The notes beneath the pieces are model-generated. The model ran no database searches and was not told the DNA's origin. It saw nothing but the letters and a program-made list of their open reading frames with translations. The position numbers and the translations under genes are program-made. Shown one piece after another: positions 30,933 through 35,048 of a stretch of DNA of 64,000 nt (positions are counted from its first letter, which is position 1; each line of letters begins with the position of its first letter). The stretch comes from Pseudomonas sp. MIACH (GTDB taxonomy: Bacteria; Pseudomonadota; Gammaproteobacteria; Pseudomonadales; Pseudomonadaceae), in assembly GCF_001269925.1 (NCBI RefSeq), contig NZ_LHVO01000056.1, positions 62,001-126,000 on the forward strand, given 5' to 3'.

Positions 30933-31421
30933 ATGAAACGGATCCTTCTCGGTACTCTCTTCACCGTCGTCTCCCTCAATGCAATGGCTGAAGCACCAGG
31001 CGGCCCTAACTGCGGTTGGGGCAACATGTTGTTCGAAGGCCAGCGCGGTACTCCGGCTCACTTCCTGGCTTCCACCACCAACGGTACTTCGGGTAACGCC
31101 ACCTTCGGCATGACCTCGGGCACCAACGGTTGCAGCACCAACAGCGCGCTGACCTACGGCGGCAAGTCCTGGATTGCCATGAATGGCATGATGAACGAGC
31201 TGTCCGAAGACATGGCCAAGGGTAATGGTGAAGCACTGACCACCTATGCCGTGGTACTGGGCGTTGCGCCGGAAGATCGCGAGCACTTCGCTGCCGTGGC
31301 TCACGAACACTTCCAGCAAATCTTCAGCAAGGCCGATGTAACCGCTGAAGACGTGCACAACAACACCCTGGCTGTACTGAAAGGCGATGCCCGTCTGGCG
31401 AAATACGCTACCCAGGCTTAA
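30933..31421 (+). CDS. DUF3015 periplasmic protein
   Basis: The 162-residue protein has a signal peptide (MKRILLGTLFTVVSLNAMA) and the DUF3015 pattern GPNCGWGNMLFEGQRGTPAHFLASTTNGTSGNATFGMTSGTNGC. Two conserved cysteines (NCGW and NGCST) could form a disulfide. Function unknown. It precedes the DUF4105 gene by 91 bp, separated by a strong terminator, so the two are neighbours but probably separate transcripts. Confidence 0.92.
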   Translation: MKRILLGTLFTVVSLNAMAEAPGGPNCGWGNMLFEGQRGTPAHFLASTTNGTSGNATFGMTSGTNGCSTNSALTYGGKSWIAMNGMMNELSEDMAKGNGEALTTYAVVLGVAPEDREHFAAVAHEHFQQIFSKADVTAEDVHNNTLAVLKGDARLAKYATQA

Positions 31422-31512: not shown

Positions 31513-33366
31513 ATGCTCAAACGCTTTGCCTGGATGGCACTCCTCGCCTGCGCCCCGCTGTACGCGGCACCGCACCTTGATGATCAACGTTTGCAGCAAT
31601 TGGCCAATGATCCGTTCTGGCTTTCTTTAGGCCATTACGAAGCCGGCAAAATCAGTGGCTGGCGCAGTTATGTCAGTGAAAAGAAATTTTTCCTCGCAGC
31701 CGATGGCGCCCACCACCCGGATGCAGAACTCAAGGCCACCGTCGATGCGCTTTACGCTCCGGCCAGCCTGGGTGAAAAACACGCCCAATGCGTTTACCCC
31801 GCACGTACCCGCTGGCTCAAGGATCAGTTGCACCTCACTGACCTGCCTGCCGTGGACTGCAAAGAATTCAAGCAATGGTTCAAGGACGTCGCGCCCCATA
31901 GCGCGGTGATGATCTTCCCGGCGGCCTACCTCAACAGCCCGTCGTCGATGTTCGGCCACACCCTGCTGCGTATCGACCAGGCCGACGTGCAGAGCAACAA
32001 GACTGCGCTGCTCAGCTACGCGATCAACTTCGGCGCCTACATCGAAGGTTCGGACAACAGCATCCTTTATGCCTGGAAAGGCCTGATGGGCGGCTACCCC
32101 GGCCTGTTCGCCCTGGTGCCCTACCAGGAAAAACTCTCCGAGTACCGCAGCCTCGAAAACCGTGACCTGTGGGAATACCGCCTCCACCTCACCCAGGTCG
32201 AGACCGAGCGCATGGTCGAGCATGTGTGGGAACTCAAGCAGATCCAGTTCGACTACTTCTTCTTCGATGAAAACTGCTCCTATCGCCTGCTGGAACTGCT
32301 GCAAGTGGCCCGTCCGGGCCTGCGCCTGACCGAGCAATTCCCGCTCACCGCCATCCCCACCGACACCGTCAAGGCGGTGAAGGATGCAGGTTTGGTAGAG
32401 AAAATCGACTACCGCCCCTCCCGCGAGCGCGAGTTGCTGGAGCGCGCCAAGCCGCTGAACAGCGACGAACAACAATGGGTGCTGAAGGTCAGCGACGACC
32501 AGCAGCAATTGCAGGCGCCGGCCTTCAAAGCGTTGCCTCGCGACCGCCAGGCCCTGATCATCGACGCGGCTTACCGCCTCGGTCGCTATCGCGCCAATGG
32601 CCTGGAACGCGACACCGCACGCTCCCAACGCAGCTTCGAGCTGCTGCGCGCGATCAACCAGAACCCAGCGCCCGACCTGAAGATCACACCCCCCGGCCTG
32701 CCCGAAAACGGCCATGAATCGCGCACCTGGCAAGCCGGCATCGGCACCCGTGGTGACAAGGCCTTCGGCGAATATGGCCTGCGCATGGCCTACCACGACC
32801 TCAACGACAACGCCGAAGGCTTCCCCCTCGGCGCGCAGATCGAAATCCTGCAGATGAAGCTGCGCCAGTACGAAGGTAACCACTGGCAACTGCAGCAACT
32901 GGACTTAGCCACCATCCGCTCCCTGACCCCGCGCAACGCCTTGCTGCAGCCGTGGTCCTGGCAAGTCACCGGCGGCCTGGAGCGGGTGCCCGGTAAGCAC
33001 GACGACGAAACCCTGGTTGCCCACGTCAACGGCGGCGCCGGTGGCACCTGGCAACTGAGCGACGACATGCTCGGCTTCGCCCTCGGCACCGTGCGCGTGG
33101 AACACAACAACGACTTCAACGAAGCCATCTCCCCCGCTGCCGGTTTCAATACCGGCGTGCTGTGGAAAAACCCCCTGGGCAACTTGAGCCTGGAGGCTAA
33201 AGGAGACTTCTTCACCAATGGCGAAGTACGGCGCAGCCTCAGCCTGAACCAGCAGTGGGAACTGTCCCGCAACCTCGGCCTACGCCTGAGTGCACAGCGC
33301 GAGTACAGCCACTTGTCGACGCCGGTGAATGAAGTGATGCTTGAGGTGAAGTGGTATCACTACTGA
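31513..33366 (+). CDS. DUF4105 (Lnb N-terminal-type) protein with probable outer-membrane barrel
   Basis: This 617-residue protein has a signal peptide (cleavage near LYAAP). The DUF4105 domain (about 130-280) has SSMFGHTLLRID (His149) and FDENCSYRLLELL (Asn254-Cys255). The last 220 residues alternate polar and nonpolar residues and end EVKWYHY, like an outer-membrane beta-barrel. The His-then-Asn-Cys order is reminiscent of circularly permuted papain-fold enzymes (YaeF/LRAT type), so a cysteine hydrolase or acyl-transferase is a possible but unproven activity. The start codon lacks a clear ribosome site. Chorismate mutase follows 48 bp later. Confidence 0.85.
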   Translation: MLKRFAWMALLACAPLYAAPHLDDQRLQQLANDPFWLSLGHYEAGKISGWRSYVSEKKFFLAADGAHHPDAELKATVDALYAPASLGEKHAQCVYPARTRWLKDQLHLTDLPAVDCKEFKQWFKDVAPHSAVMIFPAAYLNSPSSMFGHTLLRIDQADVQSNKTALLSYAINFGAYIEGSDNSILYAWKGLMGGYPGLFALVPYQEKLSEYRSLENRDLWEYRLHLTQVETERMVEHVWELKQIQFDYFFFDENCSYRLLELLQVARPGLRLTEQFPLTAIPTDTVKAVKDAGLVEKIDYRPSRERELLERAKPLNSDEQQWVLKVSDDQQQLQAPAFKALPRDRQALIIDAAYRLGRYRANGLERDTARSQRSFELLRAINQNPAPDLKITPPGLPENGHESRTWQAGIGTRGDKAFGEYGLRMAYHDLNDNAEGFPLGAQIEILQMKLRQYEGNHWQLQQLDLATIRSLTPRNALLQPWSWQVTGGLERVPGKHDDETLVAHVNGGAGGTWQLSDDMLGFALGTVRVEHNNDFNEAISPAAGFNTGVLWKNPLGNLSLEAKGDFFTNGEVRRSLSLNQQWELSRNLGLRLSAQREYSHLSTPVNEVMLEVKWYHY

Positions 33367-33414: not shown

Positions 33415-33726
33415 ATGGCCGTTACCTGCACCACCCTTGAAGAAGTCCGAAACAACATCGACCGCCTCGACCAGCAAATCGTCACCCTGCTGGCCGAACG
33501 CGGCCGCTACGTCTCCCAGGCGGCACGCTTCAAAAAAGACACCGATGGCGTCAAGGCCCCACAGCGGGTTGAGCAGGTGATCACCAAGGTGCGGGATCTG
33601 GCGCAGACCGTGGGCGCCAACCCCGAGGTGACCGAGCAGGTCTATCGCGCCATGATTGCGGCGTTTATCCAGCAGGAATTGGCGGAACATGCGGCTCTGG
33701 CGAGAGCTGAAAAGCCACAAACCTAA
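33415..33726 (+). CDS. Monofunctional chorismate mutase (AroQ class)
   Basis: The 103-residue all-helical protein has the AroQ pattern: EEVRNNIDRLDQQIVTLLAERGRYVSQAARFKKD, including the first-helix Arg, the second Arg and the Lys of the active site, and the final helix AFIQQELAEHAAL. There is no signal peptide, so it is cytoplasmic, converting chorismate to prephenate (or, in PchB-like relatives, acting as isochorismate pyruvate lyase). AGGAG lies 12 nt before the ATG. No pch or aro genes are adjacent. Confidence 0.88.
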   Translation: MAVTCTTLEEVRNNIDRLDQQIVTLLAERGRYVSQAARFKKDTDGVKAPQRVEQVITKVRDLAQTVGANPEVTEQVYRAMIAAFIQQELAEHAALARAEKPQT

Positions 33727-33962
33727 TCCATCAAACTGATCCACTCAGAATTTTCAGACTTTTGCATGCAAGTACAAATTACTACTCGGCTTCCAACCTA
33801 TTGATAAATAGGCAAGAAATTTCCGACAAATTTTTAGCTTTTTTCAGTCAAAACAAACTCCCTCTCACTCCATTCTCTTTGTGAAGATTTGTGTCTAGTA
33901 TCGAATGGCAGTCAATTTGCCATCACGTCTATACACGGATTCGAATAGGGTAAGAGGCTTAT

Positions 33963-35048
33963 ATGGAATTTTTTGAAAAGCTCACCAGTCTGGCAGCAAA
34001 AGTTCGGTTGCAAGGCCCTGCCATCCAAACAGAAGAAGCAACAAAGAACGCTTTTGTAATGCCTTTTATCAACACGGTTTTGGGTTACGACGTGTTTGAT
34101 CCACAGGAGGTAACGCCTGAGTTTGTCTGCGATATAGGGACAAAAAAAGGCGAAAAAATCGACTACGCAATTATGAAAAACGGTGAGGTTCAAATACTCA
34201 TCGAATGCAAAAAAATCGGCGAGTCATTGAGCATTAATCACGCATCGCAGTTGTTTCGATACTTTCACGTCACAAGCGCAAGAATCTCAATTCTCACGAA
34301 CGGCCAGGTCTACAGGTTTTTCACTGACCTGGATGCACCTAATAAAATGGACGAAAAGCCATTTTTAGAATTGGATCTACTGGACATCGATGAGTACTCC
34401 GTACCTGAGCTGATAAAGCTTACAAAGTCGGCCTTCGACGTCGACTCGATCATCAACGCTGCCGGAGAGTTGAAATACGTCAGCCAGCTAAAGAAGCTTA
34501 TTGGCGCCCAAGTCAGCAAACCAGAAGACGACTTCGTGAAATTCTTCGCTTCCCGCGTTTACGAGGGCGCAATCACGCAGAAAGTCCGTGAGCAATTTTT
34601 CGAACTGACACGGAAAGCGTTAGCTCAGTTTCTGAATGACCAAATCAATGATCGGCTCAAGTCGGCTATGAGCGGCGCTATTCAGCCGACGATAGCGTCA
34701 CTGACTGTCGCGAACAGCACGAATGCTGAGACTCAGGATCGAGACGAGTCAGAAGATAAAATCCTGACAACGCTTGAAGAGCTTGAGGGCTATCACATCG
34801 TCCGGGCTGTCGTCCGCTCCGTTGTCGATGCCAAAAGAATCGTTCAGCGAGATACCCAAAGTTATTTTGGCATCTTGCTGGACGACAACAATCGTAAACC
34901 GATTTGTCGCCTTCACTTCAACAGAAGTCAGAAATACCTCGGAATATTCGACGAGGAGAAAAATGAGACTCGGCACGCTATCTCATCCATTGATGAGATT
35001 TACGAGTACGCCGATCAGTTGAAAAGGACCGTGGGCTATTACGCCTGA
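33963..35048 (+). CDS. Orphan PD-(D/E)XK nuclease-like protein (HsdR N-terminal type)
   Basis: The 361-residue product has an N-terminal domain like that of type I restriction subunit R: EEATKNAFVMPFINTVLGYDVFDPQEV, then KIDYAI (Asp67) and IECKK (Glu81, Lys83), the D...ExK nuclease core. No helicase or SNF2 motifs follow; the C-terminal third (about 260-361) is a separate small alpha/beta domain. No methylase or specificity subunit is nearby. DNA here is visibly richer in A+T than its flanks, suggesting horizontal acquisition. Roles could be phage defence or DNA repair. AGAGG precedes the ATG; the 236-bp AT-rich region upstream should hold its promoter. Confidence 0.8.
   Translation: MEFFEKLTSLAAKVRLQGPAIQTEEATKNAFVMPFINTVLGYDVFDPQEVTPEFVCDIGTKKGEKIDYAIMKNGEVQILIECKKIGESLSINHASQLFRYFHVTSARISILTNGQVYRFFTDLDAPNKMDEKPFLELDLLDIDEYSVPELIKLTKSAFDVDSIINAAGELKYVSQLKKLIGAQVSKPEDDFVKFFASRVYEGAITQKVREQFFELTRKALAQFLNDQINDRLKSAMSGAIQPTIASLTVANSTNAETQDRDESEDKILTTLEELEGYHIVRAVVRSVVDAKRIVQRDTQSYFGILLDDNNRKPICRLHFNRSQKYLGIFDEEKNETRHAISSIDEIYEYADQLKRTVGYYA

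What the first reader, a model, noticed from the sequence alone, without database searches (positions are those of the whole stretch)
31513..33366. DUF4105 protein: possible permuted papain-fold enzyme joined to an outer-membrane barrel
Seen: His149 in SSMFGHTLLRID comes before Asn254-Cys255 in FDENCSYRLLELL, and the C-terminal 220 residues alternate like a barrel and end in aromatic residues. Known: in circularly permuted papain-fold enzymes (YaeF/YiiX and LRAT groups) the catalytic His comes before an NC motif at the start of a helix. Inference: DUF4105 may be a cell-envelope cysteine hydrolase or acyltransferase displayed at the outer membrane.
Basis: partly seen in the sequence, partly recalled or inferred. 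Interest (0 to 1): 0.62.

Follow-up and report, generated by a model that had tools for sequence, protein, structure and literature searches.

The report
Outer-membrane cysteine enzyme with dedicated partner
This Pseudomonas gene probably encodes a cysteine enzyme acting on lipids, tethered by its own protein barrel to the bacterial outer membrane and usually encoded beside a small partner protein of unknown function, which suggests an unexplored way of remodelling the cell envelope.

Summary
In detail: window 31513-33366 (+) encodes 617 residues with His149 before Asn254-Cys255 and a C-terminal barrel. Pfam finds DUF7843, Lnb_N (formerly DUF4105) and DUF7840. Both catalytic residues are kept in 69 of 71 members. 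Not found in print in my searches: the outer-membrane-barrel version and its partner. The shown structure matches of the barrel part are outer-membrane barrels (VIA Z up to 12.6); the catalytic core was modelled too poorly to test its fold. The enzyme is no Lnb orthologue (20 bits against 550) and coexists with a strong Lnt match in 46 of 50 genomes. It is tightly linked to a small secreted protein, DUF3015: 43 of 43 DUF3015 genomes among 229 of its class have it, 41 side by side; in some divergent lineages a small lipoprotein sits there instead. Best reading: an outer-membrane, Lnb-like thiol acyltransferase or phospholipase working with a dedicated envelope partner. Activity, membrane side and the partner's role are inferred.

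The parts
31513..33366 (+). Lnb_N/DUF4105 enzyme with outer-membrane barrel, 617 aa
   Evidence: 80 near relatives kept by the genome scan; DUF7840 in 50 of 229 class genomes, 49 over the curated cut-off
31513..31569 (+). probable type I signal peptide (residues 1-19, ...PLYAA)
   Evidence: read by eye from the translation; inference
31594..31827 (+). DUF7843 domain (residues 28-105), with invariant Cys93
   Evidence: Pfam PF25225, 85 bits; Cys93 in 26 of 26
31864..32385 (+). Lnb_N catalytic domain (residues 118-291)
   Evidence: Pfam PF13387, 203 bits
31957..31959 (+). His149, proposed catalytic base
   Evidence: 25 of 26, 69 of 71
32272..32277 (+). Asn254-Cys255, proposed nucleophile at a helix start
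   Evidence: Asn 71 of 71, Cys 70 of 71; model helix 255-266, low confidence at 245-255
32701..33357 (+). DUF7840 domain, twelve-stranded outer-membrane barrel (residues 397-615)
   Evidence: Pfam PF25222, 229 bits; strands in the model; VIA-align Z up to 12.6 to outer-membrane barrels
30933..31421 (+). DUF3015 partner gene, 162 aa, secreted (signal peptide by eye), directly upstream (91 bp gap)
   Evidence: Pfam PF11220, 183 bits; beside the enzyme in 79 of 80 scan loci and in 41 of 43 DUF3015-bearing class genomes

Best explanation
An outer-membrane, Lnb-like thiol acyltransferase or phospholipase. Shown here: an Lnb_N domain with conserved His149 and Asn254-Cys255, a separate N-terminal domain, a C-terminal outer-membrane barrel (by model), and tight genetic linkage to a small secreted protein (DUF3015) that in some lineages is replaced by a small lipoprotein. 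Inferred from the family: Cys255, activated by His149, attacks an acyl ester of a phospholipid, holds the acyl chain as a thioester and passes it to water or to an acceptor. Inferred from topology: an even-stranded barrel puts both termini in the periplasm, so the catalytic domain most likely works on the periplasmic face of the outer membrane. The partner is most likely its acceptor, activator or assembly factor. It is not a replacement for Lnt in most of its hosts.
For: Lnb_N at 203 bits. His and Cys kept in 69 of 71, and the single protein that lost both residues (L027) has neither kind of partner gene beside it. Profile comparison with 21 Peptidase_C92 sequences puts His149 on their conserved His and Cys255 on their Cys, score 23.3, reached by 0 of 300 column and 0 of 200 block shuffles. 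Published: DUF4105 papain-like (PMC10318531); sister of a phospholipase toxin clade and equal to Lnb (PMC12994826 section 11). Barrel. Strong Lnt match in 46 of 50 barrel-positive class genomes. DUF3015 linkage: 43 of 43 DUF3015 genomes in the class sample and 37 of 38 in the phylum sample have DUF7840.
Against: The model has pLDDT under 50 at 138-148, 160-215 and 245-255, so the fold and the distance between His149 and Cys255 are untested here. The C92 profile match has only 3.3% HHalign probability; with the two halves of the C92 set taken apart the Cys did not align (13 sequences: His in register, Cys not; 8 sequences: a short stretch without either), and a three-sequence LRAT set gave only a chance-like 18 columns. 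No experiment on a barrel-bearing member was found. [quoted passage not shown] Other permuted papain-like families act on proteins, not lipids (PPPDE, passage). 7 of 50 class genomes with DUF7840 have no DUF3015, and 12 of 49 in the phylum sample.
Confidence: 0.62

Rival explanations
1. A cell-surface enzyme: the barrel exports its N-terminal catalytic domain, as in type Va autotransporters such as EstA, and it hydrolyses lipids or esters outside the cell.
For: N-terminal enzyme, helical stretch, then a C-terminal twelve-stranded barrel in the model; EstA is among the structural matches (3kvn, Z 11.1, rmsd 5.7, 164 aligned).
Against: Porins with no passenger match as well or better (CymA 12.6, OmpG 12.2; differences around 1 count as ties); two invariant cysteines (93, 116) in the N-terminal part, which if disulfide-bonded before export would hinder passage (inference); no autotransporter family among the Pfam matches.
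Confidence: 0.17
2. A periplasmic peptidase or amidase tethered to the outer membrane, acting on proteins or peptidoglycan; DUF3015 would be its inhibitor or substrate.
For: The papain superfamily holds many peptidases and cell-wall amidases (PMC10318531, passages); a dedicated small neighbour fits an inhibitor.
Against: Relatives in the permuted group with published lipid activity: Lnb, Tox-Act1, TseH, LRAT, YiiX (PMC12994826).
Confidence: 0.15
3. The enzyme domain is secondary: the barrel and partner form an export or assembly complex like LptD-LptE, and DUF3015 or the lipoprotein is the plug or assembly factor.
For: The partner is secreted or a lipoprotein and usually adjacent; precedent of barrel-lipoprotein pairs (LptDE, recalled); DUF4105 linked by others to transport contexts.
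Against: His149/Cys255 kept in 69 of 71 argues that catalysis is under selection.
Confidence: 0.12

Closest known systems
Lnb, lipoprotein N-acyltransferase of Bacteroides (Lnb_N, PF13387; NCBIfam NF051878)
   Same: Same catalytic domain family; the NF051878 match spans the His and Cys motifs (protein 145-260).
   Different: 20 bits against a 550-bit cut-off; outer-membrane barrel in place of Lnb's own C-terminal part (inner-membrane helices, recalled); most of the genomes also have Lnt; partner DUF3015.
Tox-Act1 and TseH, permuted NlpC/P60 T6SS toxins with phospholipase activity
   Same: Tox-Act1 is the published sister clade of DUF4105; conserved His then Cys (PMC12994826).
   Different: The window protein has an outer-membrane anchor, and none of the five neighbours scanned in Pfam is a secretion-system gene.
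Peptidase_C92 (YiiX/YaeF) and LRAT
   Same: His before Cys; both residues align in register with the pooled C92 profile.
   Different: No C92 or LRAT match among the Pfam hits; weak profile score; extra domains and barrel.
Outer-membrane barrel enzymes (EstA autotransporter; PldA and PagP, recalled)
   Same: Enzyme joined to, or made of, an outer-membrane barrel; EstA in the structural match list.
   Different: Here a separate Lnb_N domain precedes the barrel; none of these families is among the Pfam hits.

Membership tests
Lnb_N domain (PF13387, formerly DUF4105) | Profile match above the curated cut-off | tested here: met
   203.1 bits against 22.2
Lnb (lipoprotein N-acyltransferase equivalog NF051878) | Full-length equivalog score | tested here: not met
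   20 bits against 550
Lnb (lipoprotein N-acyltransferase equivalog NF051878) | Takes the place of Lnt in the genome | tested here: not met
   Own genome has Lnt on the same contig (E 1.5e-90); 46 of 50 barrel-positive class genomes have a match at E 3.5e-63 or better; weaker only in G047, G163, G064, G067 (E<=0.001 alone is unspecific, 12 of 14 controls ring)
Lnb (lipoprotein N-acyltransferase equivalog NF051878) | N-acylates diacyl lipoproteins | not testable with these tools
   needs biochemistry
Permuted NlpC/P60 papain-like enzymes | Catalytic His before catalytic Cys, both conserved | tested here: met
   69 of 71
Permuted NlpC/P60 papain-like enzymes | Papain-like fold of the core | tested here: inconclusive
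   Core pLDDT under 50 in 160-215 and 245-255; the structure search was filled by the barrel; fold assigned in print
Permuted NlpC/P60 papain-like enzymes | Profile similarity to C92 or LRAT | tested here: inconclusive
   Pooled C92 (21 sequences): score 23.3, probability 3.3%, His and Cys in register, 0 of 500 shuffles reach it; C92 halves apart: Cys not in register; LRAT (3 sequences): nothing meaningful
Outer-membrane beta-barrel protein | C-terminal antiparallel barrel | tested here: met
   Twelve strands in 401-616; CymA Z 12.6, rmsd 4.7, 203 aligned
Outer-membrane beta-barrel protein | C-terminal aromatic residue | tested here: met
   21 of 26 end in F, Y or W; window protein ends YHY
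Type Va autotransporter | N-terminal passenger exported through the barrel | not testable with these tools
   EstA in the match list shows shape only

The most novel reading that the evidence does not exclude
A second, outer-membrane protein-acylation system: the barrel-anchored Lnb-like enzyme transfers an acyl chain from outer-membrane phospholipid to its dedicated partner, secreted DUF3015 in most lineages and a small lipoprotein in others, and so makes or adjusts an acylated envelope protein after the Lol pathway in cells that already have Lnt.
Probability: 0.2. Interest if true: 0.82.

Novelty: new variant of a known kind. Interest (0 to 1): 0.56.

Why it matters
Acyl transfer to lipoproteins is known at the inner membrane (Lnt; Lnb by recall). 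A relative of Lnb anchored in the outer membrane by its own barrel, present beside Lnt and bound genetically to one small protein, would be a new place and perhaps a new purpose for this chemistry in Pseudomonas and many other Proteobacteria. It gives two neglected families (DUF7840 and DUF3015) a shared, testable role.

Tried and rejected
Structure of the whole protein: mean pLDDT 66.7, good for the helices and parts of the barrel, poor for the catalytic core and for 427-445, 462-509. No papain, C92 or LRAT chain appeared in the 50 rows shown each; that is no evidence against the fold, since the barrel filled the lists.

DUF3015 structure: mean pLDDT 57.3; helices in 83-150, residues 1-82 without a fold, so no fold search was made.

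Sequence search of the PDB: no relevant hit with the protein or its alignment. Viral contigs: no relative. PHROGs and PADLOC: nothing for either gene.

Shared tail of DUF3015 and the two longer lipoproteins: suggestive only. With a model of the DUF3015 helical half they come at positions 49 and 51 (counted from 0) of 1609 listed matches among 3005 ORFs, E 0.056 and 0.14, with a 470-aa ORF of no known relation between them; 0 of 2000 shuffles each reach the real score, narrowly for L279 (12.4 against a best shuffle of 11.8). Pfam DUF3015 gives E 0.029 for L279 and nothing at E 0.1 for L128. Not used as proof.

Considered and dropped: Lnb orthologue or Lnt substitute; toxin or effector (no such gene among the five neighbours scanned); mobile gene (LonB-like protease and DUF3015 flank it in 79 of 80 scan loci). 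My recollection that PA1689 of P. aeruginosa is the orthologue could not be checked; PMC3398322 calls PA1689 a putative outer-membrane protein (passage) and PMC6532553 lists it as a conserved hypothetical among T3SS genes (table row).

Rows dropped before counts: A1 uses the window protein and 25 of the 30 loci L003-L032; L007 (self), L012 (split), L015, L028 (short start) and L031 were left out. A2 uses 64 of 80 loci, A3 40 of 79. The C92 set uses 21 of 24 loci (L248, L251, L253 left out; L253 holds masked N). The regions were partly chosen because they lacked DUF3015, so its totals are not rates; searches give rates. The lipoprotein model was built from enzyme neighbours and run only on regions around enzyme genes, so it cannot say how common that family is elsewhere. 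The 50 and 49 DUF7840 genomes include 1 and 2 with a match only under Pfam's cut-off. In one search some hhalign runs ended in a merge error (several seen in the cut output), so a few shuffle scores may repeat the one before. Fisher p-values (1.4e-39 and 1.7e-40) are not corrected for relatedness, although most class genomes come from different families. Class and phylum are unnamed in the tool; I call them Gammaproteobacteria and Pseudomonadota because the window is Pseudomonas.

Full report
What is there. Pfam divides it into DUF7843 (28-105), Lnb_N (118-291, the former DUF4105) and DUF7840 (397-615), all far above their cut-offs. A signal peptide is likely by eye (inference). The closest genome-scan hits, at 98-99% identity, bear Pseudomonas names.

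Conservation. Over 26 aligned members (25 relatives, 29-43% identical to the window protein), Asn254, Cys93, Cys116, Arg217, His237 and Glu240 are invariant and His149 and Cys255 are each kept in 25. In 71 members His and Cys are both kept in 69; one is truncated and one (L027) has lost both together, to Gln and Gly. All 65 rows of the Pseudomonas-type alignment keep both. That is what a Cys-His catalytic pair should look like.

Fold of the catalytic part. I could not prove it by structure: the AlphaFold2 model (mean pLDDT 66.7) is poor at 138-148, 160-215 and 245-255, and the structure matches shown are to the barrel. Independent sequence evidence is modest but pointed: a profile of the domain against 21 pooled Peptidase_C92 sequences aligns His149 with the C92 His and Cys255 with the C92 Cys, with a score (23.3) that 0 of 300 column shuffles and 0 of 200 block shuffles reach; reversing the C92 alignment gave 15.6 and a DUF3015 alignment 12.8. 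Against it: HHalign's own probability is only 3.3%, the two halves of the C92 set taken apart do not place the Cys (13 sequences: His only; 8 sequences: neither), and three LRAT sequences gave nothing meaningful. The assignment itself is already published: DUF4105 is among newly found papain-like families in PMC10318531 (passages seen), and PMC12994826 (passages and section 11 read) places it in the permuted NlpC/P60 group, sister to the phospholipase toxin Tox-Act1, and equates it with Lnb, the Bacteroides lipoprotein N-acyltransferase (Armbruster 2024; that paper is not held).

Barrel. The model has twelve strands between 401 and 616, some of them at low confidence. VIA-align gives CymA Z 12.6 (rmsd 4.7, 203 aligned), OmpG 12.2-12.3, EstA 11.1 and NanC 10.4, mostly covering 394-616. 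21 of 26 members end in an aromatic residue. Hydrophobic alternation alone is weak support (58 of 2000 shuffles reach it). An even-stranded barrel has both termini in the periplasm, so a periplasmic catalytic domain is the default reading; surface display as in EstA is a live rival.

Not Lnb itself. The NCBIfam Lnb equivalog model scores 20 bits against a cut-off of 550. Of the 50 class genomes with DUF7840, 46 have a Lnt match at E 3.5e-63 or better, among them the window's own genome; G047, G163, G064 and G067 have only weaker ones (the loose threshold of that search rings in 12 of 14 controls, so only strong matches are counted). The enzyme therefore does not stand in for Lnt in most of its hosts.

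The partner. Directly upstream (91 bp) lies DUF3015 (30933-31421), a small protein with a signal peptide by eye. It is beside the enzyme in 79 of 80 loci of the genome scan, the other (L053) being cut by a contig end. Across 229 class genomes, 50 have DUF7840 (49 over the cut-off), 43 have DUF3015 and all 43 are within the 50; in 41 of the 43 the two lie on the same strand within 3.5 kb, and in one of the other two (G212) a later look found a pair 3 bp apart on another contig. Across 398 phylum genomes the numbers are 49 (47 over the cut-off), 38 and 37, with 35 adjacent and one DUF3015 without the barrel (G279). The converse is looser: 7 of 50 and 12 of 49 barrel genomes have no DUF3015. In 40 class regions, clustering of ORFs of at least 100 aa gives the enzyme in 40, DUF3015 in 30 plus 6 in a divergent cluster, four clusters (11-21 regions) whose representatives overlap these two genes in other frames, and one cluster in 5 regions that I did not identify. 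Of 45 enzyme genes with DUF3015 on the same strand within 1.5 kb, 38 have a gap of at most 129 bp, some overlapping (starts taken at the longest frame). Relatedness was not corrected for, but most class genomes are from different families. DUF3015 is also annotated in Leptospira (PMC13066512, a table row seen), so the linkage is a statement about Pseudomonadota.

A second kind of partner. Of 63 enzyme genes in 70 regions, partly chosen for lacking DUF3015, 43 have DUF3015 only, 9 have a small lipoprotein only, 2 have both and 9 have neither; 4 of those 9 end at a contig edge on the upstream side, and one is the enzyme that lost His and Cys. All 12 hits of the lipoprotein model lie within 1.5 kb of an enzyme gene, though the model was built from such neighbours; 11 of the 12 carry a lipobox by eye, the other being a fragment. 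Of eight run against Pfam, three are PEGA over the cut-off (L279, L290, L113), L128 is just under it, and L274, L280, L291/L293 and L151 have no Pfam family over its cut-off (nine proteins in all). In two of them (L279, L128) a C-terminal stretch resembles the helical half of DUF3015, but only suggestively. So the enzyme seems to go with some small envelope protein, and the kind can change.

How it most likely works. Cys255, helped by His149, takes an acyl chain from a phospholipid as a thioester and gives it to water or an acceptor (inferred from Lnb, Tox-Act1, LRAT). The barrel holds it in the outer membrane (supported by model). The partner is acceptor, activator or assembly factor (linkage shown, role inferred). 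My most novel open reading is that the partner is the acyl acceptor.

Novelty. Papain-like DUF4105 and Lnb are known. My searches of the open-licence PMC library found two papers naming DUF4105, none naming DUF7840, DUF7843, DUF7844, PF13387, PF25222, PF25225 or PF25226, one listing for PF11220 (a fungal secretome paper, not opened) and one Leptospira paper for DUF3015. The outer-membrane variant and its partner linkage therefore look new to print within that library, hence 'new variant of a known kind'.

Noticed in passing
L002 / L301 (own genome, contig C12), P0002, 653 aa: The genome's second Lnb_N gene joins DUF7844, which carries an HELTH (zincin-like, by eye) motif, to an Lnb_N domain that keeps its His (WGHSML) and Cys (NNCAVE): apparently two hydrolase-like domains in one protein, without a barrel family match. 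Genes downstream are a CitMHS-family transporter and TerC.
   Followed up: partly
L027 / L135 (G033): A member that lost both His149 and Cys255 (to Gln and Gly) and has neither DUF3015 nor the lipoprotein within 1.5 kb: possible pseudoenzyme.
   Followed up: partly
window 33415-35048: Chorismate-mutase-like gene (33415-33726) and an orphan HSDR_N-type protein (33963-35048) lie in a variable slot: found in 14 and 4 of 80 related loci, some of which are cut short.
   Followed up: no
G047 (L151): A 100%-complete genome with a divergent enzyme, a lipoprotein neighbour, no DUF3015 match and only a weak Lnt match (E 8.3e-14): here the enzyme might do Lnt's job.
   Followed up: no
L128 8663-9283, L279 2014-2640: Lipoproteins with a PEGA or PEGA-like part and a C-terminal stretch like the helical half of DUF3015; NCBIfam's nearest model for the PEGA part is the LEPBI_I2678 family (24.8 and 43.4 bits, cut-off 240).
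   Followed up: partly
L132, L138, L142: Two DUF3015 genes in a row before one enzyme (L132, L138), and two enzyme-DUF3015 pairs in one region (L142).
   Followed up: no
G279 (L275) and G408 (L276, L277): DUF3015 without any DUF7840 gene (G279), and the two genes about 3.27 Mb apart (G408): rare exceptions to the linkage.
   Followed up: partly
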